Assembly: GCA_902790495.1 (NCBI GenBank)
Contig: CADASK010000003.1
Location: 19,684-83,683, forward strand
DNA: 64,000 nt
Direction: 5' to 3'
Source: an uncultured Eubacteriales bacterium
GTDB taxonomy: Bacteria > Bacillota > Clostridia > Christensenellales > Aristaeellaceae
The notes beneath the pieces were generated by a model, which saw only the letters and a list, made by a program, of their open reading frames with translations, did no database searches and was not told the origin of the DNA. How positions within the stretch are numbered: position 1 is the stretch's first letter; every line of letters begins with the position of its first letter. The position numbers and the translations under genes are program-made. Of the stretch, positions 15,808 through 62,195 are shown in pieces.

Positions 15808-15864
15808 CGAAGGTCCAGGGCGATCGGAAAGCCCTGGTCGCCGCCCTCAGGCGGCGAAACCCTT
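15808..15864 (+). repeat. Three-way-junction repeat, short form (copy A)
   Basis: P2 arms CCAGGGC/GCCCTGG enclose GATCGGAAA; P3 arms CGCCGCC/GGCGGCG enclose CTCA. The outer flank GAAGG faces CCCTT. The element abuts the stop codon of the DUF4332 gene, which lies on the opposite strand. Orientation plus is defined here as P2 before P3. Confidence 0.85.
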
Positions 15865-16267
15865 AGTACTCTACACCCCGGGGCATTTCCTTCGCCTGGC
15901 GAACCCAGTCGGTCACCTGGCTCAGGGCGGGCACGCGGCGCACCAGCTTCTTCTCGACGTTCACTTCGTTCATCTTCTTGAAGAGGTTGTCGGGCTTGCG
16001 GGTCGCCAGCTCGGCCACGGTGTCCACACCGGCCTCCTCCAGCAGGTCGGCGTACTCGCTGCCCACACCCTTGATGCGGAACAGGTCGCAGTGGTTGACC
16101 CACTCCAGGATCAGCTTCTCGCTGATGCCGCTCTTCTCGGCCAGCTCCTTGCGGCCCTTCTTGGTGTTGCCCGCCTTATAGAGCTGATCGACTGTGGCGA
16201 TGCCGGCGTTGGTCAGCTGGGCCTGGTAGGTCTCACCGATGCCCTCGATAAAACTCAGTTTTGCCAT
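15863..16267 (-). CDS. DUF4332 domain protein (helix-hairpin-helix)
   Basis: The 134-residue protein reads MAKLSFIEGIGETYQAQLTNAG, then FRIKGVGSEYADLLEEAGVDTVAEL, two helix-hairpin-helix units typical of DUF4332. Such units resemble the DNA-binding C-terminal domains of polymerase-like proteins, but the role of this family is unknown. The ATG at 16267 follows AAAGGATG. The gene has its own promoter and its stop touches a dispersed repeat. Confidence 0.88.
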   Translation of the reverse strand: MAKLSFIEGIGETYQAQLTNAGIATVDQLYKAGNTKKGRKELAEKSGISEKLILEWVNHCDLFRIKGVGSEYADLLEEAGVDTVAELATRKPDNLFKKMNEVNVEKKLVRRVPALSQVTDWVRQAKEMPRGVEY

Positions 16268-16321
16268 TGTGTGCCATCCTTTCCCTTGATCAGATTTGGT
16301 GGAATGGTTTCCATTAAGCAC

Positions 16322-16350
16322 ATTATAGCAAAACGCACCCCAAAAGACAA
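16322..16350 (-). promoter_or_regulatory. Promoter of the DUF4332 gene
   Basis: On the minus strand TTGTCT (16345-16350), 17 bases, then a perfect TATAAT (16322-16327). Confidence 0.8.
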
Positions 16351-16430
16351 CCCGCAACAAGGAAAAAACAGCGTCCATTCACAATTTGAATGCAACAGCT
16401 TCGCGACACAACGGCATATGTGCGAAGGGG

Positions 16431-16555
16431 CGAAGGGGTGGAGGGGGCTCGGAGCGCCCGGAAAACGCCATGTTATGGCGTTTTCAGCGGAGAGCGGGCG
16501 GTAGCCCCGGACCGATCGCAAAGCCCCCTCCCCGCGCCCGCAGGCGCGGAACCCT
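16431..16555 (+). repeat. Three-way-junction repeat, long form (copy B)
   Basis: P2 arms GAGGGGGCT/AGCCCCCTC and P3 arms CGCGCC/GGCGCG are present, with loop GATCGCAAA. Between the first P2 arm and that loop lies an insert carrying the hairpin GAAAACGCCAT-GTT-ATGGCGTTTTC, which is perfect here. A P3-like remnant (CCGCAGGCGCGGAATCCC) follows at 16604-16621. Confidence 0.85.
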
Positions 16556-16644
16556 GTTGCCGCCGCAAAGAACGACCCTTATCATGGAGCCAAGCATTCG
16601 TGCCGCAGGCGCGGAATCCCTACATAGAAAGGAATGTATCCATC

Positions 16645-17094
16645 ATGCGATGTGTCATCCAGCGCGTCACCCAGGCCAGCGTCCTCTCCGACGGAGAGGA
16701 GGTGGGCCGCATCGGCTCGGGCCTCATGATCCTCATCGGCGTCCGCGTCTCGGACACCCACGACGACGTAAAGTACATGGCCGAGCGCGTGCCCGTGCTC
16801 CGCATCTTCGAGGACGAGGCGGGCAAGATGAACCGTTCCATCCTCGACGTGGGCGGCGAGATCCTGGCGGTGAGCCAGTTCACCCTCTACGCGGACACCC
16901 GCGGCCAGCGCAGGCCGGGCTTCACGCAGGCGGCCAGGCCGGAGCAGGCCAACGCCCTCTACGAGGAGCTGATCGAGGCCTGGCGGGCGCAGGGGATCCA
17001 TGTGGAGACCGGAAGATTCCGCACCGAGATGCAGGTGAGTCTGACCAATGATGGCCCCACGACAATCCTGATGGACTCGGAGAAAACGATCTGA
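16645..17094 (+). CDS. dtd: D-aminoacyl-tRNA deacylase
   Basis: This 149-residue protein matches Dtd throughout: [13 protein letters not shown] at the start, the catalytic [15 protein letters not shown] (SQFTL motif) and [13 protein letters not shown], then [19 protein letters not shown] containing the NxGP-type motif as NDGPTT. Dtd frees D-amino acids and misacylated glycine from tRNA. The ATG at 16645 follows GAAAGGA; the open frame extends upstream only through a dispersed repeat. It converges with the YczE-like gene across a shared terminator. Confidence 0.96.
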
Positions 17095-17104
17095 TGGGTA
17101 TAAG

Positions 17105-17132
17105 AAAAGCCATCCTCAAGGATGGCTTTTTG
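17105..17132. terminator. Bidirectional terminator between dtd and the YczE-like gene
   Basis: AAAAGCCATCC pairs with GGATGGCTTTT around TCAA, giving A and T runs on both sides that serve both converging genes. Confidence 0.9.
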
Positions 17133-17142
17133 TGTGCCGCGC

Positions 17143-17799
17143 TCAGCGCTTCTTCCCGTACCGCACAGGCTCCCAGATCGTCTTGTTGAACATGGCGATG
17201 ATGGGGCCCATGCACAGGGCGGTGATGATGGTGCCCACGTGCACGATGGCGGTGACGTCCTCCCCGGCAAAGATGCACAGCGCGCCGCCAATCACCACGC
17301 AGGCCACATCGGTGATGATGCGGCACAGGCGGAAGGGCACGGTGCTCCGCTCCGACCAGGTGATGGCCATGGCGTCATAGACCGAGACGCCCATGTCCGC
17401 CACCATGTAGCACGAGGCGAACACGCAGGAGACCATCAGCGCGGCGGCGAACAGCACCAGCCGCACCGGCAGCAGCTCCACCGGCAGGGCGGCGCGGACG
17501 AGGGCCTCCGACGCGTCGATCACAAAGCCCAGCAGGAACATGTTGATCAGCGTGCCGAGGCCGATCTTCCTGCGGTTCATCAGCAGGACGATCACCAGCA
17601 TGATGCCGCTGAGGGCGGTGTAGTAGGTGCCGTAGCTCAGCGAAGGCCAGACGGTGCGCAGGGCGTAGAAGACGCCCCAGGCGAAGACCTGGAAGGGATC
17701 GACGCCGAGGGCGGCGCCCTTGTACATGCCCACGGCGACGCCGGTCATGAGGACGCCGACGGTGGTCATGACCACCCGGCGGAGGGTTTCCTGTTTCAT
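17143..17799 (-). CDS. YczE/YyaS/YitT-family membrane protein
   Basis: This 218-residue integral membrane protein has five to six hydrophobic segments. The motif GAALGVDPFQVFAWGV near residue 30 and DMGVSVYDAMAITWSE near residue 135 are duplicated GxxPxD-like signatures of the YczE family. Members are widespread in Bacillota; function is poorly known. It converges with dtd and is downstream of another membrane protein gene on the same strand, 73 bases away. Confidence 0.85.
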   Translation of the reverse strand: MKQETLRRVVMTTVGVLMTGVAVGMYKGAALGVDPFQVFAWGVFYALRTVWPSLSYGTYYTALSGIMLVIVLLMNRRKIGLGTLINMFLLGFVIDASEALVRAALPVELLPVRLVLFAAALMVSCVFASCYMVADMGVSVYDAMAITWSERSTVPFRLCRIITDVACVVIGGALCIFAGEDVTAIVHVGTIITALCMGPIIAMFNKTIWEPVRYGKKR

Positions 17800-17872
17800 G
17801 AGATAACCTCTTTCTTGATTGATGGCAGCAGGGGTTCTGCGCCCGACGTCGTGTTTTGGCGAGAAACCCGTA

Positions 17873-18451
17873 TCAGCTGCGAAGGAATTTGAGCTTCGGC
17901 CTCAGCTTCTGGGCGTAGAGCGCCACCAGCGGCATCAGCAGTCGGTCGTAGAGCAGCAGGCACAGGGCCGTCGCCGCGAAGAACAGCGCGGTCATCACCC
18001 GGCCCATCTCGCCGAACTCGGCGGTGATGGCGTCCAGGTGAAGGACATAGCCGATGAAGGCGTACATCGCGAGGATCGCCGCGAGGAAGATGGCGAGCTT
18101 CAGCAGGAGGCGCGGCGTCTTTTTGGGGACGCGCTTCTCGAGCTGCCACTTCACCAGCGGCCACCAGCCGATGAATAGATAGAAGAAGGCGGCCTCCTTA
18201 TCCAGGCCGAGGATCAGCGCCAGCAGGCCCGTGGCCAGCCAGCAGGTCCAGCCGGCCCTGCGCCCGTATTCCAGCATGGGCGGGAGCAGCAGGGCGGAGG
18301 CGAGCAGCGGCGCGGCGTAGGTCGCGATGAACATCACCCCGCCCGCGAGCATCAGCACCACGGAGAGGGCGGTCATCAGCCCGCAGAGGGCGATCATCGC
18401 GCTCATCTCCCGGGAGGAGCGCCGCCTGGTCGGTGGAGAATCTGGGGACAT
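17873..18451 (-). CDS. Multi-pass membrane protein of unknown function
   Basis: This 192-residue protein has five hydrophobic segments and a basic C-terminus (YAQKLRPKLKFLRS). The pattern (ALCGLMTALSVVLMLAGG, ATYAAPLLASALLLP, GWWPLVKW) is reminiscent of ECF-type substrate-binding membrane components, but no family is certain. GAGGAGG precedes the ATG. It is divergent from the secreted protein gene at 18623 and likely cotranscribed with the YczE-like gene. Confidence 0.75.
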   Translation of the reverse strand: MSPDSPPTRRRSSREMSAMIALCGLMTALSVVLMLAGGVMFIATYAAPLLASALLLPPMLEYGRRAGWTCWLATGLLALILGLDKEAAFFYLFIGWWPLVKWQLEKRVPKKTPRLLLKLAIFLAAILAMYAFIGYVLHLDAITAEFGEMGRVMTALFFAATALCLLLYDRLLMPLVALYAQKLRPKLKFLRS

Positions 18452-18482
18452 GGGAGGCCTCCTCTCGCGCGTGCTGGTGGTT

Positions 18483-18510
18483 ATTGTAGCACCAAAGGGG
18501 AGAAAGTCAA
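18483..18510 (-). promoter_or_regulatory. Promoter of the membrane protein pair
   Basis: Minus strand TTGACT (18505-18510), 16 bases, TACAAT (18483-18488). Confidence 0.75.
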
Positions 18511-18563
18511 GCAAAAGCACAGCCCAAATCCGCGCAAAAGTGCAACAAAAAAGGCATGAGGTG

Positions 18564-18592
18564 TTGACAAACTGCCCGTCTTTCCTTATACT
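18564..18592 (+). promoter_or_regulatory. Promoter of the secreted protein gene
   Basis: Consensus TTGACA (18564-18569), 17 bases, TATACT (18587-18592). It is divergent from the promoter at 18483. Confidence 0.85.
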
Positions 18593-18622
18593 TTGTTTAC
18601 AATTGTGACAAAGGGGGTGAAA

Positions 18623-19309
18623 ATGGCTGTGAGGAAAGTGTGTTCGATGATGCTCGCGGGCGTGCTGCTTTGGCTCGCGGCTGTTTCCGCCCTCGGCGAA
18701 GGCGCGCTGCCGACCTGCGAGGGCATGGCCTACATCTTCCAGGCCGGCACCACCATCACCGGCAAGAGCGCCTTCCCGCGCTACCTCTCGGACTTCCAGA
18801 GCCAGTGGAAGCGGCTGGAGCCGAAGGCCGCGTGGACGGAGCCGGAGGAGACGGGCATCCTGCGCTGCATCCGCTCTGACCGCGAGGGCTGCGGTGTCGC
18901 CATCCTCTATGTGGAGGAGAGCCAGCACGTGCTGGCGGTCTCCGTGTACAAGACCTTTACCCCGGACAAGAGCCGCACGGCCCGCACGGGGCTGATGGCG
19001 ACGGCCCGCCAGATGACGGAGGCCCTGATCCGTCTGGAGCACGAGGACGGCGCGGCCCAGGTGCGCCAGCAGCGCTCCGCCACCAACGAGGCCCTGCGCA
19101 CCCTGCTGGCTCCGCTGACCGACCCGGACAGTCTGGTGGAGGCGATCTTCTCCGGGCTGCGGGTGGAGGCCACGCTGGCGGGACACCAGGCGGTGTGCGA
19201 GCTGAACTACGACACCGAGGCCATGACCCTCACCGCGTCCATCGTGGTGGCCCCGACAGGCCCTTCGATGCAAGCGTCCAATGCGGGGGAGAGGCCCGGG
19301 AGAACCTGA
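18623..19309 (+). CDS. Secreted protein of unknown function
   Basis: This 228-residue protein has a signal peptide (SMMLAGVLLWLAAVSALGEG). The remainder is a soluble alpha/beta sequence with three short regions of note: GCGVAILYVEESQHVLAVSVY, a helical EALIRLEHEDGAAQVRQQRS, and VCELNYDTEAMTLTASIVV at the end. No family is recognised. AAGGGGGTG precedes the ATG, and the gene has its own promoter and terminator. It is not a typical amino-acid binding protein although an amino-acid ABC pair follows. Confidence 0.8.
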   Translation: MAVRKVCSMMLAGVLLWLAAVSALGEGALPTCEGMAYIFQAGTTITGKSAFPRYLSDFQSQWKRLEPKAAWTEPEETGILRCIRSDREGCGVAILYVEESQHVLAVSVYKTFTPDKSRTARTGLMATARQMTEALIRLEHEDGAAQVRQQRSATNEALRTLLAPLTDPDSLVEAIFSGLRVEATLAGHQAVCELNYDTEAMTLTASIVVAPTGPSMQASNAGERPGRT

Positions 19310-19360: not shown

Positions 19361-19374
19361 CTTTTCCTGTTCGC

Positions 19375-20888: not shown

Positions 20889-20929
20889 GAATCTGATATC
20901 ATAACAATGCGACAAGCCCAACGGGCACC

Positions 20930-20989
20930 CGAAGGTTTCCAAAGGGCGATCGGAAAGCCCTTTGGCCGCGCCCGCAGGCGCGGAACCCT
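20930..20989 (+). repeat. Three-way-junction repeat, short form (copy C)
   Basis: P2 arms CCAAAGGGC/GCCCTTTGG around GATCGGAAA; P3 arms CGCGCC/GGCGCG around CGCA; outer GGTT faces AACC. It is paired with copy D in opposite orientation 30 bases on. Confidence 0.85.
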
Positions 20990-21019
20990 ACTGTTGTAGA
21001 CATATGCAGTCATGAGTCT

Positions 21020-21082
21020 TGCAAAGGATGTCGGCCTGCGGGCCGACCCGGGGGCTTTGCGATCGCCCCCGGGACCCCTTCG
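21020..21082 (-). repeat. Three-way-junction repeat, short form (copy D)
   Basis: In reverse orientation, P3 arms TCGGCC/GGCCGA and P2 arms CCCGGGGGC/GCCCCCGGG keep the loops CGCA and GATCGCAAA. The stem bases differ from copy C at most positions while pairing is preserved. Confidence 0.85.
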
Positions 21083-21126
21083 CAGCATGACTTGAATATG
21101 GCAATTCTCTTTGAGAAGAATCAAAC

Positions 21127-23535: not shown

Positions 23536-23569
23536 TAGCAACCCTTCAGACTGTAACCTTCAAGAGGAT

Positions 23570-23606
23570 GCGCGAAGGGTTGCCCCCGGGACCCCTTCGC
23601 AGCATG
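23570..23606 (-). repeat. Truncated three-way-junction repeat (copy E)
   Basis: About 25 bases (GCCCCCGGGACCCCTTCGCA) match the end of copy D, but P3 and the first half of P2 are missing. It follows the CoA-transferase stop. Confidence 0.6.
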
Positions 23607-25278: not shown

Positions 25279-25402
25279 GACCTCATCCGTCAGCGTCTGA
25301 CGACGCTGCCACCTTCCCCATAGGGGAAGGCTTTAGGGACCGTTCCCCAGCCTTCCCCCTTGGGGAAGGTGTCAGCCCGCTTGCGGGCTGACGGATGAGG
25401 TC
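25279..25402. repeat. Large palindromic repeat, second family (CCTCATCCGTCAG type)
   Basis: Perfect 16-bp terminal arms GACCTCATCCGTCAGC and GCTGACGGATGAGGTC enclose four small hairpins, two of them CCTTCCCC...GGGGAAGG. This cruciform, MITE-like design matches elements I have seen in gut Clostridia. A partial copy is at 41991. A P3 remnant of the first family (CCCGCAAGCGCGGAACCC) follows to 25421. Confidence 0.8.
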
Positions 25403-25426
25403 GCCCGCAAGCGCGGAACCCATGCA

Positions 25427-25822
25427 ATGAATCCGATAACAAAGATGAGCAATACAACAAACATCCGAACGCAATACACCTCCGGCCTCGCCGGTGAAAC
25501 CCAGGCCGAGCGCTATCTCGCCTCCCTGGGCTACACCCCGATCACGCGCCGTTACCGCGGCGGCGACGGCGAGATCGACCTGATCCTCCGGGACGGGGAC
25601 ACCCTGGTCTTTGTGGAGGTCAAGGCGCGGCCCCGGGGCGCGGCGGGGCAGGGGCTGCTGGCCGTGACGTCTGCCAAGCAGAGACGCATGACCCACGCGG
25701 CCAGGCGGTTTTTGCTGGAGCGGGATGCTTTGGACAGCCCCGTTCGTTTTGATGTGGTGGAGATTACAGCCAGTGGGCTGCTCCACGTGAAGGATGCGTT
25801 CAGGCCGCAAAGAGCGTGGTAA
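25427..25822 (+). CDS. UPF0102 protein YraN (nuclease-fold)
   Basis: This 131-residue protein has the YraN pattern: GLAGETQAERYLASLGY, GGDGEIDLILRDGDTLVFVEVKAR (the D...EVK motif of restriction-endonuclease-like folds) and RFDVVEI near the end. It usually follows rnhB, as here, although a palindromic repeat now separates the two. Its substrate is unknown; a role in DNA repair or recombination has been proposed for related proteins. The first ~15 residues are not conserved and the start may lie at a later ATG. Confidence 0.92.
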   Translation: MNPITKMSNTTNIRTQYTSGLAGETQAERYLASLGYTPITRRYRGGDGEIDLILRDGDTLVFVEVKARPRGAAGQGLLAVTSAKQRRMTHAARRFLLERDALDSPVRFDVVEITASGLLHVKDAFRPQRAW

Positions 25823-25849
25823 AATGCCCTTTGCGGTTGCATGGCAGCA

Positions 25850-25914
25850 GAGGGTTTCGCCGCCTGCGGGCGGCGACCAAAGGGCTTTGCGATCGCCCTT
25901 TGGAAACCTTCGCC
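25850..25914 (-). repeat. Three-way-junction repeat, short form (copy G)
   Basis: Reverse orientation: P3 CGCCGCC/GGCGGCG around TGCG (CGCA when reversed), P2 CCAAAGGGC/GCCCTTTGG around TTTGCGATC. Outer AGGGTTT faces AAACCTT. Confidence 0.85.
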
Positions 25915-35332: not shown

Positions 35333-35460
35333 CAGGGGTTCCGCGCCTGCGGGCGCGGGGAGGGGGCTTTGCGATCGGTCCGGGGCTGCCGCCCGTTCTC
35401 CGCTGAAAACTCCATAACATGGAGTTTTCCGGGCGCTCCGAACCCCCTCCACCCCTTCGC
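35333..35460 (-). repeat. Three-way-junction repeat, long form (copy H)
   Basis: P3 GCGCCTGCGGGCGC, P2 GGAGGGGG with CCCCCTCC, and an insert with the perfect hairpin GAAAACTCCAT-AAC-ATGGAGTTTTC. It splits the sugar operon between the binding protein and the second permease. Confidence 0.85.
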
Positions 35461-41759: not shown

Positions 41760-41820
41760 GGCGTGGTCTCCTTTCGGCAAATGTTTTTTAAAGAAATGCA
41801 TTCATATGCTGAATGCAGGA

Positions 41821-41882
41821 GCAGGTTCCGCGCCTGCGGGCGCGGGCAGGGGGCTTTGCGATCGCCCCCTGCACCCCTTCGC
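41821..41882 (-). repeat. Three-way-junction repeat, short form (copy I)
   Basis: P3 CGCGCC/GGCGCG; P2 CAGGGGGC/GCCCCCTG around TTTGCGATC. First of three repeats filling the gap between the ABC-F and YycJ-like genes. Confidence 0.85.
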
Positions 41883-41917
41883 GTCGCCTTTTTTTCAAGC
41901 TGCGAAAAGGTGCGGCC

Positions 41918-41975
41918 CGAAGGTCCAGGGCGATCGGAAAGCCCTGGTCGCCGCCCGCAGGCGGCGAAATCCTTT
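41918..41975 (+). repeat. Three-way-junction repeat, short form (copy J)
   Basis: P2 CCAGGGC/GCCCTGG around GATCGGAAA; P3 CGCCGCC/GGCGGCG around CGCA; outer AAGG faces CCTT. Opposite in orientation to copy I, 35 bases away. Confidence 0.85.
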
Positions 41976-41990
41976 TGCATAAGAGTGCAG

Positions 41991-42939: not shown

Positions 42940-43006
42940 TGCGAAGGGGTGCAGGGGGCGATCGCAAAGCCCCCTGCCCGCGCCCGCAGGCGCGGAACCC
43001 CATGCA
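42940..43006 (+). repeat. Three-way-junction repeat, short form (copy K)
   Basis: The cleanest copy: outer stem GGGGT/ACCCC, extended by TGC/GCA; P2 CAGGGGGC/GCCCCCTG around GATCGCAAA; P3 CGCGCC/GGCGCG around CGCA. It lies upstream of the YycJ-like gene and downstream of the LicD gene. Confidence 0.88.
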
Positions 43007-43033
43007 AAGGAAAGACGAGGAGAAAGACTTTTC

Positions 43034-43783: not shown

Positions 43784-43828
43784 AAGGCATACTCCTATTC
43801 AAACGGAGTGATTTCTTTTTGCGTGACG

Positions 43829-43866
43829 CAGGGGTTCCGCGCCTGCGGGCGCGGGTCAGGGGCTTT
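43829..43866 (-). repeat. Truncated three-way-junction repeat (copy L)
   Basis: P3 GCGCCTGCGGGCGC and the first P2 arm (TCAGGGGC) are kept; the rest is missing. It lies between the transketolase and LicD genes. Confidence 0.7.
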
Positions 43867-43887
43867 TGGGAAGGTGAGCTGTGGATA

Positions 43888-46467: not shown

Positions 46468-46592
46468 GCGAAGGTTTGCAAAGGGCTCGTAGCGCCCGGA
46501 AAACACCATGTTATGGAGTTTTCAGCGGAGAACGGGCGGCAGCCCCGGACCGATCGCAAAGCCCTTTGCCCGCGCCCGCAGGCGCGGAATCT
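46468..46592 (+). repeat. Three-way-junction repeat, long form (copy M)
   Basis: P2 GCAAAGGGCT/AGCCCTTTGC, P3 CGCGCC/GGCGCG, loop GATCGCAAA. The insert hairpin GAAAACACCAT-GTT-ATGGAGTTTTC has one mismatch. Confidence 0.85.
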
Positions 46593-46605
46593 CTGCCGCT
46601 CGCGG

Positions 46606-46664
46606 AGCCAACCCCTCAGTCATCGCTGACGCGATGACAGCTCCCCTCATAGGGGAGCCAGGGA
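46606..46664. repeat. Third palindromic family (CAGTCATCGCTGACG type)
   Basis: Two small hairpins: GTCATCG/CGATGAC and CTCCCCTCATAGGGGAG. A related block, CTCTCCCAGAGGGAGAG after TTTCGCTTCGCTCGACAG, is at 46812-46858. The pair frames copy N. Confidence 0.6.
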
Positions 46665-46672
46665 TAAGGCGG

Positions 46673-46799
46673 CTGCGAAGGGATCCCGGAGGTTCGGAGC
46701 GCCCGGAAAATTCCATGTTATGGAGTTTTCAGCGGAGAACGGGCGGCAGCCCTGGACCGATCGCAAAGCCCCCGGGTCGGCCCACAGGCCGAAACCCCT
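46673..46799 (+). repeat. Three-way-junction repeat, long form (copy N)
   Basis: P3 TCGGCC/GGCCGA around CACA, loop GATCGCAAA, insert hairpin GAAAATTCCAT-GTT-ATGGAGTTTTC with one mismatch. The P2 arms are less regular than in other copies. Confidence 0.78.
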
Positions 46800-46811
46800 G
46801 CTGTGGGAGCC

Positions 46812-49677: not shown

Positions 49678-52600
49678 TTACTCCACAACCGGCGCAGGAA
49701 GCCCTTCCTCGTCCAGCCGCTCCATGGTCTCCAGCTCGCCGTCCGCGCCGTAGGTGTAGACCGTCTCGGCCCAGCCGTCGAGGCAGGCGATCAGGCCGCC
49801 GTCGATGTCGTAGAGGCTTTCGCGGATCAGCCGGCCTGCCTCGTCGTAGTCCATGCGGCGCTCGCTGAAGGTGTCGTTGCCGGAGGTGGGCTGGTAGTCC
49901 GCGTCGGCGTAGGTCTCGCGGGTCACCCGGCCGGCCTCGTCGTGCTCGCGGTAGATCTCCGCGTAGCCGTCGGCGTTCTCGGTCAGTGCGCCGTCCGCGT
50001 CGTAGAAGCGCTCCAGCACCAGGCAGCCGAAGCTGTCGTAATCCCGGGTCACGGCCGCATAGCCACCGGCAAGCACCGCGGGCTCGCCCGAGGCGTCAAA
50101 CCAGGCCTCGTAGGTCACCCGGCCGTCCTCGTCATACTGGTAGACGATGTCCGCGTAGCCCTCGGCGCTGACCACGGGCTGGCCGTCCGCGTCCAGGCAG
50201 ATGGCCTCCTGCACATGGCCGGCGTCGTCGAGGATGTATCGGCTGCCGACCCACTGCGCGCCGTCCCTGGCCCAGGGCTGGCCGTCCGTGCCGAACCAGC
50301 GCTCCTCGGTGATCTGGCCGTTGCTGTTCATGACATAGCGCACCTGCGCCCAGCCCGCCGCGCAGGCCGTCGGCTGGCCGTAGGCGTTGTAATAGCTCTC
50401 TGTGAGGGTGTGATCCGCCTCGCTGAAGGTGCGGCGAAGGGTCACGTAGGACTCGCCGTCCGCCGGGGCGCTCTGGCCGGCCGCGTCGAACCAGGCCTCC
50501 ATCACCGCGTTGCCGGCCCCGTCATAGACCGTGCGGTGGGAAGCCCAGCCGGTGCGCAGGGGCTGGCCGTCCGCGCCGTAGCGGATGACGGCGGCAGGCC
50601 GTCCCGCGGCGTCGTACTGGGTGCTGACGGCGGCGCAGCCGTCCTCCTGGGCCTTCAGCTGGCCGTCCGTGCCGTAGTAGGCGGTGAAGATCGCCAGACC
50701 CTCGGCGTTGTACTCGTAGGCGACGGCCGCATAGCCGCCGGCCAGGGTCAGGCTGCCGTTTTCATCCAGGTAGCGCTCGCTGGTCACGAGGTCCTGATCG
50801 TTGTAGGTGTACATCACGGCGCTGCAGCCCGAGGCGCTGCGGGCGGGCAGCCCGGCCTCGTCCAGGTAGCGGATCATGGTCACGCGGCCCTTCGCGTCGC
50901 GGGTGTATTCCGCCGTGGCCCAGCCCTCGTCGCCGGTCACGGCCTGGCCCTGGGCGTTGAGCCAGGTGCGGGAGGTCTCCAGGCCCTCGGCGCCGTAGGC
51001 GACGCGCACGCTGCCCTCGCCGCCCGCGGTGAAGAAGCTCTCCTCCGTGAGAACGCCGTCCTGACTCCACTGGCGGCGGATCTCCATCCAGCCGTCAGGG
51101 CCGGCGGTGGGATTGCCCGCCGCGTTCAGCCAGCGCTCGGCTGTCACGTTGCCCTTCGCGTCGTAGGTGTATTCCGCCGCGGGCTTCACCGTGCCGGAGG
51201 CAATCTCCTCCGCGGTGGAGGTGCGCTCAAAGACGACGTGGCCGGCGGCGTCGTAGCGGCGTTCCGCCCGCGCGTAGCCCGCGAGGGTGTCCACCGGCTG
51301 GGCGTCCGCGTCCATGTAGTTCTCCTCCACGAGGCGGTTGCGCTCGTCGTAGCGCACGCGGTAGCTGCTGTAGGTGTCGCCCTGGGGCGCGCCGCGGCCG
51401 TCCGCGCCCGTCCAGGTCTCCGCCACCAGGCGGCCGTCCTCGTCGTAGGCGCGCTCCACCGCCGCGTAGCCCACGCCGGGGTCTACGGGCTGCAGGGCCT
51501 CGTCAAAGAAGCTCTCGGAGAGGATGTTCTCGTCGGCGTCATAGGTTCTGCGGCGCTCGGCCCAGCCCTCGCGGCAGCGCACCAGGCGGTTTTCGCTGTC
51601 GATGTAGCGGGTGAGGGTCACGTTGCCGGCCTCGTCGTAGGCGTACTGCACGGTGGCCCAGGTGTCGCCCTGGGTCATGGGCTGGCCGTCGGGGCCGTAC
51701 CAGGTCTGCTCGGTGACGCGCCCCGCCTCGTCGCGCACGGTGCGGATGCCCGCGTAGCCCTCGCGGCTGAGGGTCAGCTGGCCCTCGCCGTCGAAGTACC
51801 ATTCGCCGGCCACGCGGCCCTGGGCGTCATAGACGTAGGCCACCCGGGCGTAGCCGTCCGCGCAGTCGGTGGGCTGGCCGCTTTCGTCCAGGTAGGTGAC
51901 CTCGCCCAGGCGGCCCGCCGCATCATAGGCCCAGGCCACGCCCGCGTAGCCGTCGGCGGTCACGGCGGCCCTGCCGTTCAGGTCATACCAGATCTGCCGC
52001 ACGATGCGGCCCTTGTCGTCCCGGGTGAGCTGCACGGAGGCGTAGCCGTCGGCGGTCTCCACGGGCTTGCCGCTCTTGTCCAGGTAGGTCTCGGTGACGC
52101 TGCCGTCCTTGCCGTAGGCGAAGCTCTTCTGCCAGTAGCCGCCCTTGGTCTCGGTCTTCAGGCCGTTGACGCCCTCGTAGCGCTCCAGCGTCACGCGGCC
52201 CTGCTCGTCGTTCTCATACTCCACGGCCGCGTAGCCCTCGCCCAAATCGACGGAGGCGTCCCGGGTGTCAAACCAGCCCTGCCACACCAGGTAGTGGTTC
52301 TTGTCCCAGTCCTTGCGCACCACGGCGTAGCCGGAGGCCGTGTCCACCAGCTGGCCGTCCAGGCCCTGGTAGTATTCGGCGGTGATGTTCCCGGCCAGGT
52401 CGTACTCATAGCTGACGGAGGCATAGCCCTCGTCGGTGAGCATCGGCGCGCCGGTGCCGTCGGCGTAGGTCACGCCGGTCAGCTTGCCGTCCTTGTCGTA
52501 GGTGAAGTTGCGGGTGGCGGCCCCGTGCAGGCTGGCGGGGGTGCCGTCGGCGCGCAGATAGGCCTCATGGGTCACCTGGCCGTCCGCGTTCCAGTCCTTG

Positions 52601-54462
52601 CGCACCACGGCGTAGCCCTCGGCGATGTCCGTCAGCTGGCCGTCGGCGTCCAGGTAGGTCTCCTCGACGATGTTCTTGTCCGCGTCCAGCACGCGGCGCA
52701 CGGCGGCGTAGCCCGCCTTGAGCACCACGGGGCGGTCGTCCACGCCGTAGAAGGTGAGGGTGTAGGAGGAGCCGTCCGCGCTGTTCTCACGGCGGGTGTA
52801 GGCGTACTCCTCGCCGGCCAGGAGGGTCATGCGGCCGTCGATGTCATAGTAGCGGGTGGTGATCAGCTCGCCGCCCGCGCCGTACTCGTTGCGCAGGGAG
52901 GCGTAGCCGCCCTTGATGACCACGGGCTGGCCGTTCTCGTTGTAATAGCGCTCGGTCTCCACCTGGCCGTCCGCCGTGTAGGTGTAGCGGACGCTGTGCC
53001 AGCCCTCGGCGCTCACGGCGGGCTTGCTGTTGCGGTAGCAGGCGACGCTGGCGATGCGGTCGTTCTGCCAGGTGTAGCGGCGCTGGCTGACGCCGGCGTT
53101 GTCCACCATCTCGCCGCCGATGGAGTCCAGGTAGACCTCGCTGGTCTTGTGGCCCAGGGCGTCGTAGGTGTATTCGGCGGAGGCGTAGCCGTCCGGGCCG
53201 TTGACGCGCTTGCCGTCCGTGCCCATGTAGAGGATGCCGGTCAGCATCCCCGCCTTGTCGTACTTGTAGGTGATCTTGTAATAGCCCTCGGCGCAGGTGG
53301 CGGGCTTGCGGTTCGCGTCCTCGTAGTAGACCTCGCGCAGCAGGCTGCCGCTCCAGTTGGAGCACTCCCGGGCGTAGCCGAAGGAGGGCACGACCATCAG
53401 CTTGTCGTTGAGGCCGAAATACTGGCGGCGGGTCACGTTGTTCTTGCCGTCGTAGTTGTAGTCGATGCGGCTGTAGCCCAGGGCGGTCTCGGTGCGCTCA
53501 CCCTTGCTGTCCAGGAAGCGCTCGCTCTCCACGCGGTTCTTCACGCCCAGGATCTGCAGCACGGCACAGTAGCCGTCCGCCGTCTCGAAGGGCTTGTCCT
53601 CGGTGTCAAAGTAGCTGCGGGTGCATGTGTTCTGCCGGCCCGTGCGGTACTCCACGGTCATAGAGGCGTAGCCCTGGGGCCCGGGCACCTTCTCCTTCGC
53701 CGCGCCGTAGTAGGCCTCCTTCACCAGGCGGCCCCGCTCGTCCAGCGAGCGCTCCTCCATGGCCCAGCCCAGGCGGGTGTTGACCGCCAGGCTGCCGCGC
53801 TCGTCCAGGTAGCGGGCCAGCAGGCGGGTCTCGCCGTCCTCCGACCAGCTCCACTCGGCGCTGGCGTAGCCCTCGGCGCACACGAAGCCCTTGCCGTCCG
53901 CGCGCTTGTAGCTCTCGGTGGCCTTCACGGTGTTCTCGCCCTTGACCGCCCAGGTGATGGTGTGGGTGGCGTAGAGGGCGGGGGAGTCCAGGGGCTTGGC
54001 GTCCGCGCCGTAGTTGCGGGTCTGGGTCATGCGGTGGTTGCTGTAGTCCATCTCGCACACCGCGTAGCCCTCCGGGCCGATCACGTAGCCGCCCCGGCTG
54101 TCGGTGTAGGCGCGGCGGGTCATCTCTCCGAACTCGTTGTATTCGTTCGCACACACGGCCCAACCCATCGCGCCCTCGCAGGCCTGGCCCTTCTCGTCAT
54201 AATAGGAGGTGCGCGTGAGCAGCTCGCCCTGGTACTCGTAGCGCACCGTGGCGTAGCCCGCGTCCTCGGCCACCACGACCTGGCCCGAGGCGTCGGTGAA
54301 GCTCATCTCGGTGATCTGTCCGTCGGCGTTGACCACCCGGCGGGCGGTCAGCTCGCCCGAGGTCAGCGCCAGCGCGGGATGCGCCCCGGCAAACGCGCCG
54401 AAGGCGAGGAAGGAAGCCAATAACACAGAAACGGCCCTGCGGACGGGTCGACGCTCTTTCAT
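49678..54462 (-). CDS. Giant secreted YD/RHS-like tandem repeat protein
   Basis: This 1594-residue protein has a signal peptide (AVSVLLASFLAFGAFAGAHP). The rest is about 48 tandem repeats of 32-34 residues. One unit reads roughly GYA.V.Y.YD..G....E.YLD..GQP....D, for example GYARVAYVYDAQGRVAGEWY. The YD..G core resembles YD/RHS repeats, which bind carbohydrate and can form a beta shell, but there is no RHS core or C-terminal toxin and no anchor. Repeats near the N-terminus are most diverged. The ATG at 54462 follows AGGTG by 9 bases. Carbohydrate binding is plausible but unproven. Confidence 0.85.
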   Translation of the reverse strand: MKERRPVRRAVSVLLASFLAFGAFAGAHPALALTSGELTARRVVNADGQITEMSFTDASGQVVVAEDAGYATVRYEYQGELLTRTSYYDEKGQACEGAMGWAVCANEYNEFGEMTRRAYTDSRGGYVIGPEGYAVCEMDYSNHRMTQTRNYGADAKPLDSPALYATHTITWAVKGENTVKATESYKRADGKGFVCAEGYASAEWSWSEDGETRLLARYLDERGSLAVNTRLGWAMEERSLDERGRLVKEAYYGAAKEKVPGPQGYASMTVEYRTGRQNTCTRSYFDTEDKPFETADGYCAVLQILGVKNRVESERFLDSKGERTETALGYSRIDYNYDGKNNVTRRQYFGLNDKLMVVPSFGYARECSNWSGSLLREVYYEDANRKPATCAEGYYKITYKYDKAGMLTGILYMGTDGKRVNGPDGYASAEYTYDALGHKTSEVYLDSIGGEMVDNAGVSQRRYTWQNDRIASVACYRNSKPAVSAEGWHSVRYTYTADGQVETERYYNENGQPVVIKGGYASLRNEYGAGGELITTRYYDIDGRMTLLAGEEYAYTRRENSADGSSYTLTFYGVDDRPVVLKAGYAAVRRVLDADKNIVEETYLDADGQLTDIAEGYAVVRKDWNADGQVTHEAYLRADGTPASLHGAATRNFTYDKDGKLTGVTYADGTGAPMLTDEGYASVSYEYDLAGNITAEYYQGLDGQLVDTASGYAVVRKDWDKNHYLVWQGWFDTRDASVDLGEGYAAVEYENDEQGRVTLERYEGVNGLKTETKGGYWQKSFAYGKDGSVTETYLDKSGKPVETADGYASVQLTRDDKGRIVRQIWYDLNGRAAVTADGYAGVAWAYDAAGRLGEVTYLDESGQPTDCADGYARVAYVYDAQGRVAGEWYFDGEGQLTLSREGYAGIRTVRDEAGRVTEQTWYGPDGQPMTQGDTWATVQYAYDEAGNVTLTRYIDSENRLVRCREGWAERRRTYDADENILSESFFDEALQPVDPGVGYAAVERAYDEDGRLVAETWTGADGRGAPQGDTYSSYRVRYDERNRLVEENYMDADAQPVDTLAGYARAERRYDAAGHVVFERTSTAEEIASGTVKPAAEYTYDAKGNVTAERWLNAAGNPTAGPDGWMEIRRQWSQDGVLTEESFFTAGGEGSVRVAYGAEGLETSRTWLNAQGQAVTGDEGWATAEYTRDAKGRVTMIRYLDEAGLPARSASGCSAVMYTYNDQDLVTSERYLDENGSLTLAGGYAAVAYEYNAEGLAIFTAYYGTDGQLKAQEDGCAAVSTQYDAAGRPAAVIRYGADGQPLRTGWASHRTVYDGAGNAVMEAWFDAAGQSAPADGESYVTLRRTFSEADHTLTESYYNAYGQPTACAAGWAQVRYVMNSNGQITEERWFGTDGQPWARDGAQWVGSRYILDDAGHVQEAICLDADGQPVVSAEGYADIVYQYDEDGRVTYEAWFDASGEPAVLAGGYAAVTRDYDSFGCLVLERFYDADGALTENADGYAEIYREHDEAGRVTRETYADADYQPTSGNDTFSERRMDYDEAGRLIRESLYDIDGGLIACLDGWAETVYTYGADGELETMERLDEEGLPAPVVE

Positions 54463-54465
54463 CAC

Positions 54466-54528
54466 GAAAAACACCTGCGCTTTCGCATAGTTATTCCTTT
54501 TCTGATTTCTATGGAAGGGGTGTTTTTC
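54466..54528. promoter_or_regulatory. Inverted repeat upstream of the giant repeat protein
   Basis: GAAAAACACC (54466-54475) and GGTGTTTTTC (54519-54528) are perfect 10-bp arms 43 bases apart. The first overlaps the ribosome binding site. It may be an operator or an mRNA stem that masks the start. No convincing promoter is seen between them. Confidence 0.4.
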
Positions 54529-59206: not shown

Positions 59207-59213
59207 GATGCGG

Positions 59214-59342
59214 CAGGGGGTTCCGCGCCTGCGGGCGCGGGCAAAGGGCTTTGCGATCGGTCCGGGGCTGCCGCCCGCTCTCCGCTGAAAACTCCATAAC
59301 ATGGTGTTTTCCGGGCGCTACGAGCCCTTTGCAAACCTTCGC
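59214..59342 (-). repeat. Three-way-junction repeat, long form (copy P)
   Basis: P3 CGCGCC/GGCGCG, P2 GCAAAGGGCT/AGCCCTTTGC, insert hairpin GAAAACTCCAT-AAC-ATGGTGTTTTC with one mismatch. It lies upstream of the terminator in the direction of the coiled-coil genes. Confidence 0.85.
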
Positions 59343-59384
59343 CCGTCCGCTGTAGTTTGGCAATATTCAATGTGATAAAAGGCG

Positions 59385-59996
59385 TCAGGGATTCTCTTCG
59401 CCGCTCAGGTGCATCTCACTCAATCGCGCCTCGGTGTCCACCAGCATCAGCGACAGGGAACCGGCGGCGGGATCGTCCTCGTCCAGCACGTCCAGCAGCC
59501 CCTCGATGGCGGCGCGGCGGGTCAGCAGGGCATCATGGATCGCCTGCTGCAGGGCCGCGTGCTTCTGGGCGTCCGGCCCTGCCTCCATGGCCTCGGAGGC
59601 CTCGTGCAGGGCCCGGTCGGCGTTGGTCATCTCCTGCAGGAGACCGTTCAGCGTGTCCGCCTGCTCCTGCCAGCGGGCCGCCTCGGCCTCCTTCTCCTGG
59701 CGCAGGTCGGTCAGTGTCGCCAGCTGCAGGCGGATGCTTGCGGATTTGTCCATGGATTCCTGCAGGGCCAGGGCGGCGTCCCGCAGGCTGTTTTCGATGG
59801 CGGCCTGGTCGGCCTGGAGGGCTTCCTTCTGGGCCGCGGTGGCCTGCCAGGCGCTCTCGCTCTGGGTCAGGTCGGCCTCGGTCTGGCGCAGGGCTGCCTC
59901 CCGGGTCTGCCCCTTCTGCCACAGGCCCACGATCAGGCCGACGGCCACGAGGATCACCAGGCACAGCAGGGCGTTCAGACCTCGTTTAGTGCCCAT
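59385..59996 (-). CDS. Membrane-anchored coiled-coil protein (second of a pair)
   Basis: The 203-residue protein has an N-terminal anchor (ALLCLVILVAVGLIVGLWQ), then a long Gln/Glu/Ala-rich coiled coil (~32-160) and a short acidic end (LDVLDEDDP). Its start overlaps the preceding gene by 11 bases, so the two are cotranslated. The paired anchor-coil design recalls FtsL/DivIC or SNARE-like partners, but no family is certain. A repeat and a terminator follow. Confidence 0.75.
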   Translation of the reverse strand: MGTKRGLNALLCLVILVAVGLIVGLWQKGQTREAALRQTEADLTQSESAWQATAAQKEALQADQAAIENSLRDAALALQESMDKSASIRLQLATLTDLRQEKEAEAARWQEQADTLNGLLQEMTNADRALHEASEAMEAGPDAQKHAALQQAIHDALLTRRAAIEGLLDVLDEDDPAAGSLSLMLVDTEARLSEMHLSGEENP

Positions 59997-60483
59997 GGCG
60001 CACCTCCTGCGCGCGGGCGGTCAGATCCTGCTGGACGCGGCCCTCCGGCGTCTGCCGCTGGAAGGCGAGCCACAGCGCGCCCGCGTCGTTGAGCAGGCCG
60101 GTCTCCTCGCTGACGGCGCTCAGCAGGGCGTCGCGGGCCTCGTCGGCGGCCAGCTGGCTGGCAGTGACGGCCTCGGTCAGCGTCTTGTCCGCGGCGCGGG
60201 CCTCCTTGCGGGCGGCGCGGAGCTCAGCCTCCTCGCTGGCGGCGATGTCCCGCATGGGCAGCAGCTCGTCCAGCGTGGCCTGCACGCGGGGGATGGCCTC
60301 CTGCACCTGCTCCAGCTCCACCTGCTGCTTGCGCTCCCGCTGGCGGCTGTAGGCAAGCTGATTCTCGGTGTCTGTCATGCGCGCGCGCCAGTCCGTGGCT
60401 GTCACCGCGTTGGCTGCGATGGAGCCGCAGACGGCTAAAAGCGCCGCGCCTGCAGCCAGGCGTGTGCCCTTTCCGTTGGCCAT
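59986..60483 (-). CDS. Membrane-anchored coiled-coil protein (first of a pair)
   Basis: The 165-residue protein has a short N-terminal hydrophobic segment (LAAGAALLAVCGSIAANAV) and a coiled coil (~40-135; RQRERKQQVELEQVQEA). AAAGGAGGTGAGCTG precedes the ATG, a very strong ribosome binding site. It overlaps the second coiled-coil gene. The similar architecture suggests they bind each other. Function unknown. Confidence 0.75.
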   Translation of the reverse strand: MANGKGTRLAAGAALLAVCGSIAANAVTATDWRARMTDTENQLAYSRQRERKQQVELEQVQEAIPRVQATLDELLPMRDIAASEEAELRAARKEARAADKTLTEAVTASQLAADEARDALLSAVSEETGLLNDAGALWLAFQRQTPEGRVQQDLTARAQEVRHGH

Positions 60484-60505
60484 CAGCTCACCTCCTTTTG
60501 TGCAT

Positions 60506-60533
60506 ATTGTAACATATCGTCATAAAAACGCAA
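60506..60533 (-). promoter_or_regulatory. Promoter of the coiled-coil pair
   Basis: Minus strand TTGCGT (60528-60533), 16 bases, TACAAT (60506-60511), in an AT-rich stretch unlike the rest of the window. Confidence 0.7.
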
Positions 60534-60565
60534 TATATAATTCAAATAATAAAAGAAAACGTTAC

Positions 60566-60595
60566 AATTGTTAACAATTACGGCTGGTCAGCCGT
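60566..60595. other. Perfect palindrome and adjacent hairpin
   Basis: AATTGTTAACAATT (60566-60579) is a perfect 14-bp palindrome, and ACGGCT/AGCCGT around GGTC follows at once. The hairpin may end the Pr6Pr transcript on the minus strand; the palindrome may be an operator for the coiled-coil promoter 33 bases away. AACGTTACA also occurs on both sides. Confidence 0.5.
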
Positions 60596-60635
60596 CCTTG
60601 CAGCATTTGTAACGTTTGGTTTCGGTTGTTGGCGC

Positions 60636-61310
60636 TTACTTCGCCATCACTTTTCCGCGCAGGAACCGCAGCAGATGCGCGAGGCCCCAGGTGCCGATGA
60701 CCATCACCACCGCGATGACGCCGGCGACGCCCTTGCCCCAGGTGAAGAAGCCGTAGAAATCGTTCGTGGCCGGCCAGACGCCGACGCCGTTGATCAGGTT
60801 GTTGCCCACATACCACACGCCGTAGAGGGCCATGGGCAGCGCGCCCCAGAGGGCGTCCTTGGCCCGCAGCTCACCCTCGCGGCAGAGGAAGACGAAATCG
60901 AGGGCGGCCACCACCGGCACGGTCAGGTGCAGGTGCAGGCTGACCCCGGCGAACATGGGCGGATAGCCGAACATCGGGCCGAGGAAAACCATCACCGTCA
61001 GGAAGGTCAGGGAGACCGAGACCGTGCCGGCGAACTTGAGCACCAGCGTCCGGTGCGAGGTGCGGCGGCGCAGGAGCAGCGCGGCCCACAGGAGGCCGGC
61101 CGCGGCCATCAGCAGGTTGGAGAGGATGGTGAAATACTTCAGGCTCTCCCAGTTAGCACTGGCGAGCCGGCCGTTGCCGCCGGCGCGGAGGAACATGGTC
61201 AGCCAGCTGCCGATGGCCAGGAGGGCGAAGGCGATGTTCAGCGCCGCGGAGACCCTGGCGCGCGCGGAGAGCGGCTCGCGTCCGCGTGCCGTCTCAGAAG
61301 CCGAGCGCAT
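60636..61310 (-). CDS. Pr6Pr family membrane protein
   Basis: The 224-residue protein has six hydrophobic helices and the Pr6Pr pattern: NWESLKYFTILSNLLMAAAGLLW, HLHLTVPVVAALDFVF and ALYGVWYVGNNLINGVG. The family relates to FAR-17a/AIG1-type proteins; no reaction is established in bacteria. Its start overlaps the end of the LUD gene by 17 bases, so the two form an operon. Confidence 0.85.
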   Translation of the reverse strand: MRSASETARGREPLSARARVSAALNIAFALLAIGSWLTMFLRAGGNGRLASANWESLKYFTILSNLLMAAAGLLWAALLLRRRTSHRTLVLKFAGTVSVSLTFLTVMVFLGPMFGYPPMFAGVSLHLHLTVPVVAALDFVFLCREGELRAKDALWGALPMALYGVWYVGNNLINGVGVWPATNDFYGFFTWGKGVAGVIAVVMVIGTWGLAHLLRFLRGKVMAK

Positions 61311-61920
61311 CGTTGCAGAGGATCACATGGATGCGATCCGCGTGGCGGGAGAAGCGGGTGATGAGGAACTGGCAGCAGATGGTGTCCATGCTCTTGCAGT
61401 TCATGCACGCGCCGACCTTCTTGCAGGGGGTGTCCACCGGGAAGCGCTGGGCGTTGGTCACGGCGGCCACGGAGCGGGCGCGCTTCACGGCGCTGTCCAC
61501 GTCAGGGCAGACCTTGTTCATGCCCACGATCATGATGACCTTGCGCGGGCCGTTGCAGATGTAGGAGACGCGGTTGGCGTTGCCGTCGATGTTCACCAGC
61601 ACGCCGTCCTCGGTGATGGCGTTGACGCCGCTGAGGAAGACGTCCGCGCCGTAGCCGCGCAGCAGGGCCTCGCGGGGATCGCCGACGGCACGGTCGAGGA
61701 ACTCGTAGCTGCCGTTCTTCACCGCGTCCACCAGGCCGATCTCGATGGCGCTGGTCGCGCCGCCCATGGTGACGCTGGCGCCCTCGGGGATCAGGGAGAG
61801 GGCGATGCGCAGGGCCTCGTCCTTGTCGGCGGCCCAGTGGCCGGTCATGTTGCGGCTGTTCAGGCCCTTGATGACCTTCTGCGCCAGCAGTTCGTTGCGC
61901 CTGGAGACATAATCGTTCAT
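61294..61920 (-). CDS. LUD domain protein (LutC/YkgG-like)
   Basis: This 208-residue protein has the LUD (DUF162) pattern: GASVTMGGATSAIEIGLVDAV, VFLSGVNAITEDGVLVNIDGNANRVSY and RKVIMIVGMNKVC. LUD proteins take part in L-lactate oxidation with LutA and LutB, but stand-alone members without the iron-sulfur partners, as here, are common in Clostridia. Several cysteines near the end (GACMNCKSMDTICC) could bind metal. AAGGAGTG precedes ATG 61920. Confidence 0.9.
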   Translation of the reverse strand: MNDYVSRRNELLAQKVIKGLNSRNMTGHWAADKDEALRIALSLIPEGASVTMGGATSAIEIGLVDAVKNGSYEFLDRAVGDPREALLRGYGADVFLSGVNAITEDGVLVNIDGNANRVSYICNGPRKVIMIVGMNKVCPDVDSAVKRARSVAAVTNAQRFPVDTPCKKVGACMNCKSMDTICCQFLITRFSRHADRIHVILCNDALGF

Positions 61921-61972
61921 ACGGGTCACTCCTTTTCAATTCTGAAGAGAAAGAGCTGTTTGCTCTGCTGCC

Positions 61973-62001
61973 ATTATAAGGCAATGACACGCCGGGCACA
62001 A
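61973..62001 (-). promoter_or_regulatory. Promoter of the LUD/Pr6Pr operon
   Basis: Minus strand TTGTGC (61996-62001), 17 bases, TATAAT (61973-61978). Confidence 0.78.
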
Positions 62002-62012
62002 GTCCCGGCACA

Positions 62013-62057
62013 GAAAAACCGTCCTGAAAGCAACGTGTGGTTTTCAGAACGGTTTTT
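62013..62057 (-). terminator. Terminator of the isomerase/dehydrogenase operon
   Basis: AAAACCGT.CCTGAAA pairs with TTTCAG.AACGGTTTT and gives a T run on the minus strand. It lies after repeat copy Q. Confidence 0.85.
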
Positions 62058-62067
62058 TCGTCATGAC

Positions 62068-62195
62068 AGCAGGGGTTTCGGCCTGCGGGCCGACCCGGGG
62101 GCTTTGCGGTCGGTCCAGGGCTGCCGCCCGTTCTCCGCTGAAAACTCCATAACATGGCGTTTTCCGGGCGCTCCGAGCCCCCTACACCCCTTCGC
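62068..62195 (-). repeat. Three-way-junction repeat, long form (copy Q)
   Basis: P3 TCGGCC/GGCCGA, loop GACCGCAAA (one base off the consensus), insert hairpin GAAAACTCCAT-AAC-ATGGCGTTTTC with one mismatch. The P2 arms pair partly. Confidence 0.8.

What the first reader, a model, noticed from the sequence alone, without database searches (positions are those of the whole stretch)
15808..62195. Dispersed intergenic repeat family with covarying three-way-junction structure
At least 14 full and 3-4 partial copies lie between genes at 15808, 16431, 20930, 21020, 23570, 25850, 35333, 41821, 41918, 42940, 43829, 46468, 46673, 48730, 59214 and 62068, with a diverged relative at 7838. Seen directly: P2 arms change between copies (CCAGGGC/GCCCTGG, CCAAAGGGC/GCCCTTTGG, CCAGAGGC/GCCTCTGG, CAGGGGGC/GCCCCCTG, CCCGGGGGC/GCCCCCGGG) while the loop GATCG(G/C)AAA hardly changes. 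P3 arms change likewise (CGCCGCC, CGCGCC, TCGGCC with their complements) around CGCA. The outer stem also covaries (GGGGT/ACCCC, AAGG/CCTT, AGAG/CTCT). Paired changes with fixed loops mean the fold is selected or copied as a unit. No T run follows, so these are not simple terminators. I do not recognise the family.
Basis: seen in the sequence. Interest (0 to 1): 0.9.

Follow-up and report, generated by a model that had tools for sequence, protein, structure and literature searches.

The report
Dispersed pseudoknot-triplex repeat of Clostridia and phages
Hundreds of copies of one short folding repeat lie between the genes of an uncultured bacterium related to Clostridia; copies from related bacteria and viruses change in step in a way that points to a conserved knot with a three-stranded helix, a variant of triplex repeats known from other bacteria, whose function and means of spreading are unknown.

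Summary
The repeat is real: 14 full copies plus 1-4 fragments in the window, 408 cores in the 2.47 Mb genome (reversed-pattern control 0). A stricter pattern hits 84 of 308 genomes of the family, 0 of 389 class genomes outside it, and viral contigs. No Rfam family matches. The linker read as an outer-stem arm instead tracks the purine arm of P2 by the code G-G, A-A, T-A (297 of 325 positions, permuted 220.2 +/- 6.7); linker and P2 length move together in hosts (167 of 176 parsed copies); the base before CGAAG covaries with a loop base (C-G 40, G-C 28, other 3). Together this describes an H-type pseudoknot with a class I purine-motif triple helix on one strand, most likely acting as single-stranded DNA (inferred). 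Copies occur in both orientations, form BIME-like unlike pairs and differ between sister species, so it behaves as a non-autonomous interspersed element. No Y1 transposase or reverse transcriptase was found in the four highest-copy genomes; the mobiliser is unknown. Closest known kind: BoxC/PIT/TM intrastrand-triplex repeats, with a REP/BIME life style.

The parts
15807..15872 (+). short copy (P2 7 bp, linker 2 nt; S1 is T, a T-G wobble)
16430..16555 (+). long copy (about 65-nt inserted domain in P2); boundaries from ~120-130 bp blast hits elsewhere in G000 and G005
16589..16630 (+). fragment (P3 remnant)
   Evidence: E 0.013
20929..20999 (+). short copy (P2 9 bp, linker 4 nt)
21015..21083 (-). 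short copy, tail-to-tail pair with 20929
23554..23605 (.). weak fragment
   Evidence: E 0.27-0.38
25363..25432 (+). fragment (P3-like)
   Evidence: E 0.006
25842..25913 (-). short copy
35334..35460 (-). long copy
41812..41882 (-). short copy, inverted pair with 41917
41917..41983 (+). short copy (P2 7 bp, linker 2 nt)
42941..43011 (+). short copy; orthologous copy in the sister species has linker, arm and 3' arm changed together
42941..42943 (+). pseudoknot strand S1-C-G (inferred to pair with loop C-G-S2, 42963-42965)
42947..42950 (+). linker, inferred third strand of the triplex
42951..42977 (+). P2 hairpin: purine arm 42951-42959, loop GATCGCAAA 42960-42968, pyrimidine arm 42969-42977
42978..42995 (+). 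P3 hairpin, loop CGCA
43821..43869 (-). fragment (P3 and part of P2)
   Evidence: E 0.0039
46468..46593 (+). long copy, absent at the sister-species locus L053
46675..46800 (+). long copy, absent at the sister-species locus L053
48729..48797 (+). short copy (P2 8 bp, linker 3 nt)
59207..59342 (-). long copy
62061..62198 (-). long copy (loop GACCGCAAA)

Best explanation
The repeat is a non-autonomous interspersed DNA element whose working part is a fold of one strand. Read 5' to 3': S1-C-G (pseudoknot strand), A-A-G, a linker of 2-5 nt, the purine arm of P2, loop GA-N-CGS2-AAA, the pyrimidine arm of P2 and, in most host copies, a P3 hairpin and an AA[C/T]CC tail. S1CG pairs with CGS2 in the loop (H-type pseudoknot), and G plus the linker lies in the major groove of P2 as an antiparallel third strand with triplets G*G-C, A*A-T and T*A-T (class I purine-motif intrastrand triplex). 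Shown by comparison: pairing and covariation of P2 and of S1 with S2, the linker-arm code, length scaling in hosts, copy number, distribution, and absence at sister-species sites. Inferred: the three-dimensional fold itself, that it forms as DNA when the strand is exposed in replication or recombination, that an unidentified trans-acting enzyme recognises the folded strand, and that this spreads the element between gene ends of hosts and phages in the manner of REP/BIME elements but without a RAYT.
For: Copy number: 408 cores in G000, 519 in G010, 314 in G002, 275 in G035, 55 in the sister species G005, 34 each in G001 and G006, 1-7 in the six other congeners. Strict pattern: 84 of 308 family genomes, 14 of 50 genera, reversed control 0; 1 of 391 class genomes, the own one. 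Length rule L = n-5 in 167 of 176 short copies parsed from 325 distinct core loci. Third-strand code: 82/88 over the 23 of 32 host haplotypes that keep the length rule (permuted 64.7 +/- 3.3, 0 of 20000); 30 virus-only strings 109/120 (81.2 +/- 4.6, 0 of 5000); pooled 82 strings 297/325 (220.2 +/- 6.7, highest 245 in 5000); other anchors 43-90 of 123 against 117 of 123. S1:S2: CG 40, GC 28, other 3 of 71, both states on many arm backgrounds. Orthologous pair window 42941 / L053: linker G to T, arm G to A and 3' arm C to T together. Mobile behaviour: two long copies absent at the orthologous site; 20 of 20 typed head-to-head pairs in G010 and 6 of 7 in G035 join unlike types (GGTC counted as the long form of GGT). 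DNA rather than RNA: G.T 14 and A.C 18 mismatch cells over P2 and P3 of hosts and viruses; host tandem gaps hold sense and antisense copies (G000 37/25, G002 11/10, G010 8/7). Purine-motif triplexes are stated not to form in RNA (PMC4666352, Introduction part 1).
Against: No mobiliser found, and no clean empty site or target duplication: intergenic DNA of the sister species is too diverged, and direct repeats of 10 or more flank 6% of G000 copies (control 1%), 4% in G010 (3%), 13% in G002 (3%). Permutations treat distinct strings as independent although copies share ancestry; strings of unusual length were left out. 28 of 325 positions break the code. Most search patterns fixed the two inner pseudoknot pairs and limited S2 to G or C, so only the S1:S2 pair is a test. 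In viruses the length rule is looser: P2 of 9 with linker 4 in 34 and linker 5 in 21 of 83. Phage and g51 copies lean antisense (36 vs 16; 27 vs 16), which plain orientation-free insertion does not explain. The AAA and the H-type order are also typical of RNA pseudoknots (recalled). In g51 and phages many copies have their own arms and sit tightly against gene ends, which looks like a local role rather than recent copying. E. coli TM motifs gave no in vivo footprint of a stable triplex (PMC4666352, passage).
Confidence: 0.58

Rival explanations
1. It works as RNA: a pseudoknot in transcripts that stabilises 3' ends, regulates translation or binds a protein.
For: H-type pseudoknot order with a conserved AAA; copies lie at gene 3' ends and, in g51, some lie directly upstream of ribosome-binding sites; phage and g51 copies have an orientation lean.
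Against: That lean is antisense, and host tandem copies are mixed; G.U is not tolerated more than A.C (14 vs 18); nine genes downstream of sense copies have nine different annotations; no Rfam match; purine-motif triplex reported not to form in RNA.
Confidence: 0.2
2. Classical REP/RAYT system whose transposase is missed by binning, assembly or the profile.
For: REP/BIME life style: intergenic, hundreds of copies, unlike inverted pairs, a four-base 5' foot before a hairpin; a published Y1 class is flanked by structures with foot CnGA, ~600 copies in Solibacter (PMC6006769, passages); G006 holds a RAYT 1.75 kb from one copy; copies often lie within 100 bases of contig ends (G006, G010).
Against: No Y1_Tnp match in G000, G002, G010, G035, G005, G001; no element in the DNA held around 20 RAYT loci of the family; a RAYT profile of my own finds only the known RAYT and IS200 genes in 4.18 Mb of fetched DNA, which samples the genomes only in part; the foot is not GT[AG]G.
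Confidence: 0.2
3. Bidirectional transcription terminator or insulator family.
For: Placed after stop codons on either strand; few copies in divergent gaps.
Against: A run of six or more T follows directly in two of about 40 g51 copies printed; a plain terminator needs neither pseudoknot nor third-strand code.
Confidence: 0.1
4. Type III toxin-antitoxin pseudoknots or phage mimics of them.
For: Similar size (36-45 nt) and pseudoknots in hosts and phages (PMC4627078, PMC5086642, passages).
Against: ToxN family in 2 of 14 genomes, of which only G002 is element-rich; in both, other antitoxin-like repeats precede the toxin (by eye; the tandem repeat finder lists no row there); copies are not arrays before a toxin.
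Confidence: 0.02

Closest known systems
BoxC / PIT / TM intrastrand-triplex repeats (PMC4666352: outline, Introduction part 1, sections 14 and 15 and passages read)
   Same: Short dispersed intergenic DNA repeats with purine-motif triplets GGC and A(T)AT, no strand bias to genes, about 37 nt
   Different: The E. coli TM is class II with a nine-position stem and short loops; here class I with 3-6 triplets, a conserved 9-nt loop tied by a pseudoknot, optional P3, a long form with an inserted domain, and copies in viral contigs. It falls outside the ITxF search definition (stem 6-15, loops 1-6).
REP / BIME elements with RAYT (TnpA-REP)
   Same: Intergenic, hundreds of copies, 5' foot before a hairpin, unlike inverted pairs
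   Different: No GT[AG]G foot, no RAYT found in the high-copy genomes, pseudoknot and third strand
Class 3 TnpA-Y1 structures with CnGA foot (PMC6006769, passages)
   Same: High copy number (~600 in Solibacter); foot CnGA resembles CCGA
   Different: Other phyla; GCGA copies break CnGA; no Y1 gene found here; the word pseudoknot does not occur in that text
Type III antitoxin pseudoknots (ToxI, CptI)
   Same: H-type pseudoknot, 36-45 nt, phage link
   Different: Not in arrays before a toxin, no sense orientation

Membership tests
Class I purine-motif intrastrand triplex | Order third strand, purine arm, pyrimidine arm; triplets GGC, AAT, TAT in sequence | tested here: met
   297/325 positions of 82 strings; sequence evidence only
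BoxC/PIT/TM as searched by ITxF | Triplex stem 6-15 nt, loops 1-6 nt | tested here: not met
   3-6 triplets (2-5 linker positions plus one fixed G), 9-nt loop
BoxC/PIT/TM | Fold forms in vitro | not testable with these tools
   needs oligonucleotides
REP/RAYT | GT[AG]G foot 5' of the hairpin | tested here: not met
   foot is [C/G]CGA
REP/RAYT | RAYT gene in the genome, flanked by the repeat | tested here: not met
   one RAYT in G006, 1.75 kb from a copy; MAGs, so absence is not proof
BIME | Unlike units in inverted pairs | tested here: met
   20 of 20 typed head-to-head pairs in G010, 6 of 7 in G035
MITE / transposon end | Target-site duplication and defined ends | tested here: inconclusive
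   g51 copies without P3: 14 of 41 with direct repeats of 10 or more vs 5.2% control, but many are gene-end or motif duplications
Type III toxin-antitoxin | Antitoxin repeats before a ToxN-like gene | tested here: not met
Rfam 15 families | Score above gathering | tested here: not met
   below threshold best E 0.18
Retroelement moved by a reverse transcriptase | RVT_1 in the genome | tested here: not met
   none in G000, G002, G010, G035 at E 0.001

The most novel reading that the evidence does not exclude
A single-stranded DNA pseudoknot held by a triple helix, kept by selection as its three-way covariation shows, is the substrate of an undescribed strand-processing system, independent of Y1 transposases and reverse transcriptases, shared by one Clostridia family and its phages.
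Probability: 0.28. Interest if true: 0.9.

Novelty: new variant of a known kind. Interest (0 to 1): 0.72.

Why it matters
Whether intrastrand DNA triplexes form and matter in cells is open; the E. coli TM study saw no stable triplex in vivo (PMC4666352, passage). Here evolution supplies a test: three positions change together (G*G-C to T*A-T or A*A-T) on many sequence backgrounds and in viruses. Inverted repeats can be kept in step by template switching, but a mirror repeat with T opposite A cannot (inference). It names exact mutants to make and points to an unknown mobiliser.

Tried and rejected
Chance: the reversed pattern gives 0 and in every same-family genome, but 1 in each of 5 of the 24 same-order genomes, where the short core itself gives 0-4; so low counts with the short core mean nothing. 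Watson-Crick pairing of the linker with the P2 3' arm: 52/88 at best. RAYT, reverse transcriptase, ToxN. Replication-strand bias: G000 33 vs 20 with 34 ambiguous, none clear elsewhere. Autonomous copy with a gene between two elements: ten genes from such spans were looked at by their first 60 residues and showed no transposase by eye; among 682 predicted genes of the sample the only near-identical paralogues were one pair in G010. Empty sites in G005 and G007: intergenic DNA too diverged. Plasmids: no match; phage records: 2 partial matches, both of which hold a motif. The model R1 took only P2 as structure. My direct-repeat test counted some g51 copies twice because a script took the first occurrence of a repeated string (share this); redone by position, 14 of 41 copies without P3 (from 9 loci) against 5.2%; one search had 40% against 7%. 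The pseudoknot screen used a score threshold that favours complementarity. Gene calls are simple scripts of mine; 20 of 83 phage motifs fall inside predicted genes, probably calling errors in part. Papers: ten searches, listings with starts of abstracts; read in part: PMC4627078, PMC5086642, PMC6006769 (passages), PMC4666352 (abstract, Introduction part 1 of 2, sections 14 and 15, passages). I saw no description of this element there; that speaks for these searches only.
Full report
What was given and what is there. The window is part of a 2.47 Mb, 78-contig genome. Its named relatives are uncultured Clostridia MAGs, many from ruminant gut by their titles; the nearest, L053 (92% ParB identity), lies in G060, which has the same size and the same listed copy places as G005. 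The listed repeats exist: 14 full copies by covariance model, 8 short and 6 long, plus one to four fragments. The genome holds 408 cores.

Anatomy. Short copies read S1-CGAAG-linker-P2-GATCGS2AAA-P2'-P3-AA[C/T]CC. Long copies carry about 65 nt between the P2 5' arm and the loop; in G002 another insertion sits on the 3' side. P3 is missing in G019, in some G035 copies and in 41 of 59 g51 copies; 27 of 87 viral copies show a P3-like hairpin by a loose test. The pseudoknot with P2 is therefore the core.

Structural tests. (a) P2: see the observation check; 5 of 9 pairs change on both sides, in a set that was chosen to pair. (b) Pseudoknot: in the host sample S1-S2 is C-G 112, G-C 67, G-G 2, T-G 1, A-C 1 of 183; 31 of 32 host haplotypes are complementary and one is T-G; 81 of 83 viral motifs keep all three pairs, with a threshold that favours this; 65 of 71 sequences keep all three with no such requirement. 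Most patterns fixed the two inner pairs, so S1:S2 is the informative one. The loop base before CGS2 varies (T, C, G), so the pseudoknot is three pairs. (c) Third strand: stem and linker length move together in hosts (7/2, 8/3, 9/4, 10/5; 167 of 176), less strictly in viruses. Linker bases match the purine arm, read antiparallel and anchored three pairs below the loop, by G-G, A-A, T-A: 297 of 325 over 82 strings. In the host set identity alone (mirror repeat) gives 55/88 and Watson-Crick with the 5' arm at most 29/88, against 82/88. The order third strand, purine arm, pyrimidine arm with antiparallel purine triplets is class I of the published scheme (PMC4666352).

DNA or RNA. G.T and A.C mismatches are about equally rare (14 and 18 cells), unlike what RNA selection on one strand would give. 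Host tandem copies are mixed in orientation. Phage and g51 copies lean antisense to the flanking genes, which is not what a sense RNA element would do, but also asks for an explanation. The paper cited states that purine-motif triplexes cannot form in RNA. I favour single-stranded DNA, without proof.

Distribution and spread. High copy numbers occur in separate lineages (G000, G002, G010 in one genus, G035 in another; G291 147 and G069 100 by the strict pattern) next to relatives with none. The strict pattern misses long copies, so its numbers are lower bounds. Outside the family 0 of 389 class genomes have it (391 searched, two of the family among them). At 46468-46800 two long copies are missing from the sister species, whose gap is about 39 bp; loss there is not excluded. 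At 42941 both species have the copy and differ by a concerted change.

Placement. Divergent gaps hold 0 of 48 copies in G010, 0 of 15 in G035, 7 of 80 in G000 (divergent gaps are 37 of 236 gaps of 60 nt or more in that sample) and 1 of 27 in G002. In G010 and G035 unlike types pair head to head 121-297 nt apart, as in BIMEs. In g51, copies without P3 lie with the 3' arm near a gene boundary, often just after a stop codon of the opposite strand; 14 of 41 have direct repeats around them against 5.2% in the control, several of them gene ends or tandem units of gene end plus motif.

Mobiliser. None found: no Y1_Tnp in G000, G001, G002, G005, G010, G035, no RVT_1 in the four richest, no element in the DNA held around 20 RAYT loci. 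These are MAGs and copies often lie at contig ends, so absence is not proof.

Verdict. A new variant of the known kind 'dispersed intrastrand-triplex repeat', with a REP/BIME life style. New are the pseudoknot tie, the three-way covariation, the sharing with viral contigs, and the lack of a RAYT in the genomes searched.

Noticed in passing
window 49678-54474 (-): Long open frame with 96-nt coding repeats (about 32 aa), many copies 60-80% alike.
   Followed up: no
window 11370-15584 (+): 1404-aa frame with direct repeats between about 11.7 and 12.5 kb, no NCBIfam hit at E 1e-10.
   Followed up: no
G000 C1:1-60000 (L013-L015): Three 20-kb stretches without any copy, against about one per 6 kb in the genome; island, prophage or contaminant not checked.
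   Followed up: no
L384 5121-5618 (-), genome G006: RAYT-like gene cut by the contig end, 1.75 kb from a copy; 26 of 250 family genomes have a relative.
   Followed up: partly
L385, L386, L387 (G009, G007): Nearly identical IS200-type TnpA genes in two species.
   Followed up: no
L416, L417 (G002, G008): ToxN-like genes preceded by antitoxin-like repeats similar to each other; in G002 a copy of the element lies just downstream of the toxin gene.
   Followed up: partly
L435, L440, L450: Tandem units made of the last codons of a gene plus the motif.
   Followed up: partly
L036-L044 (G010), L045-L048 (G035): Arrays of alternating orientation with partly conserved inner and outer flanks around unlike pairs.
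   Followed up: partly
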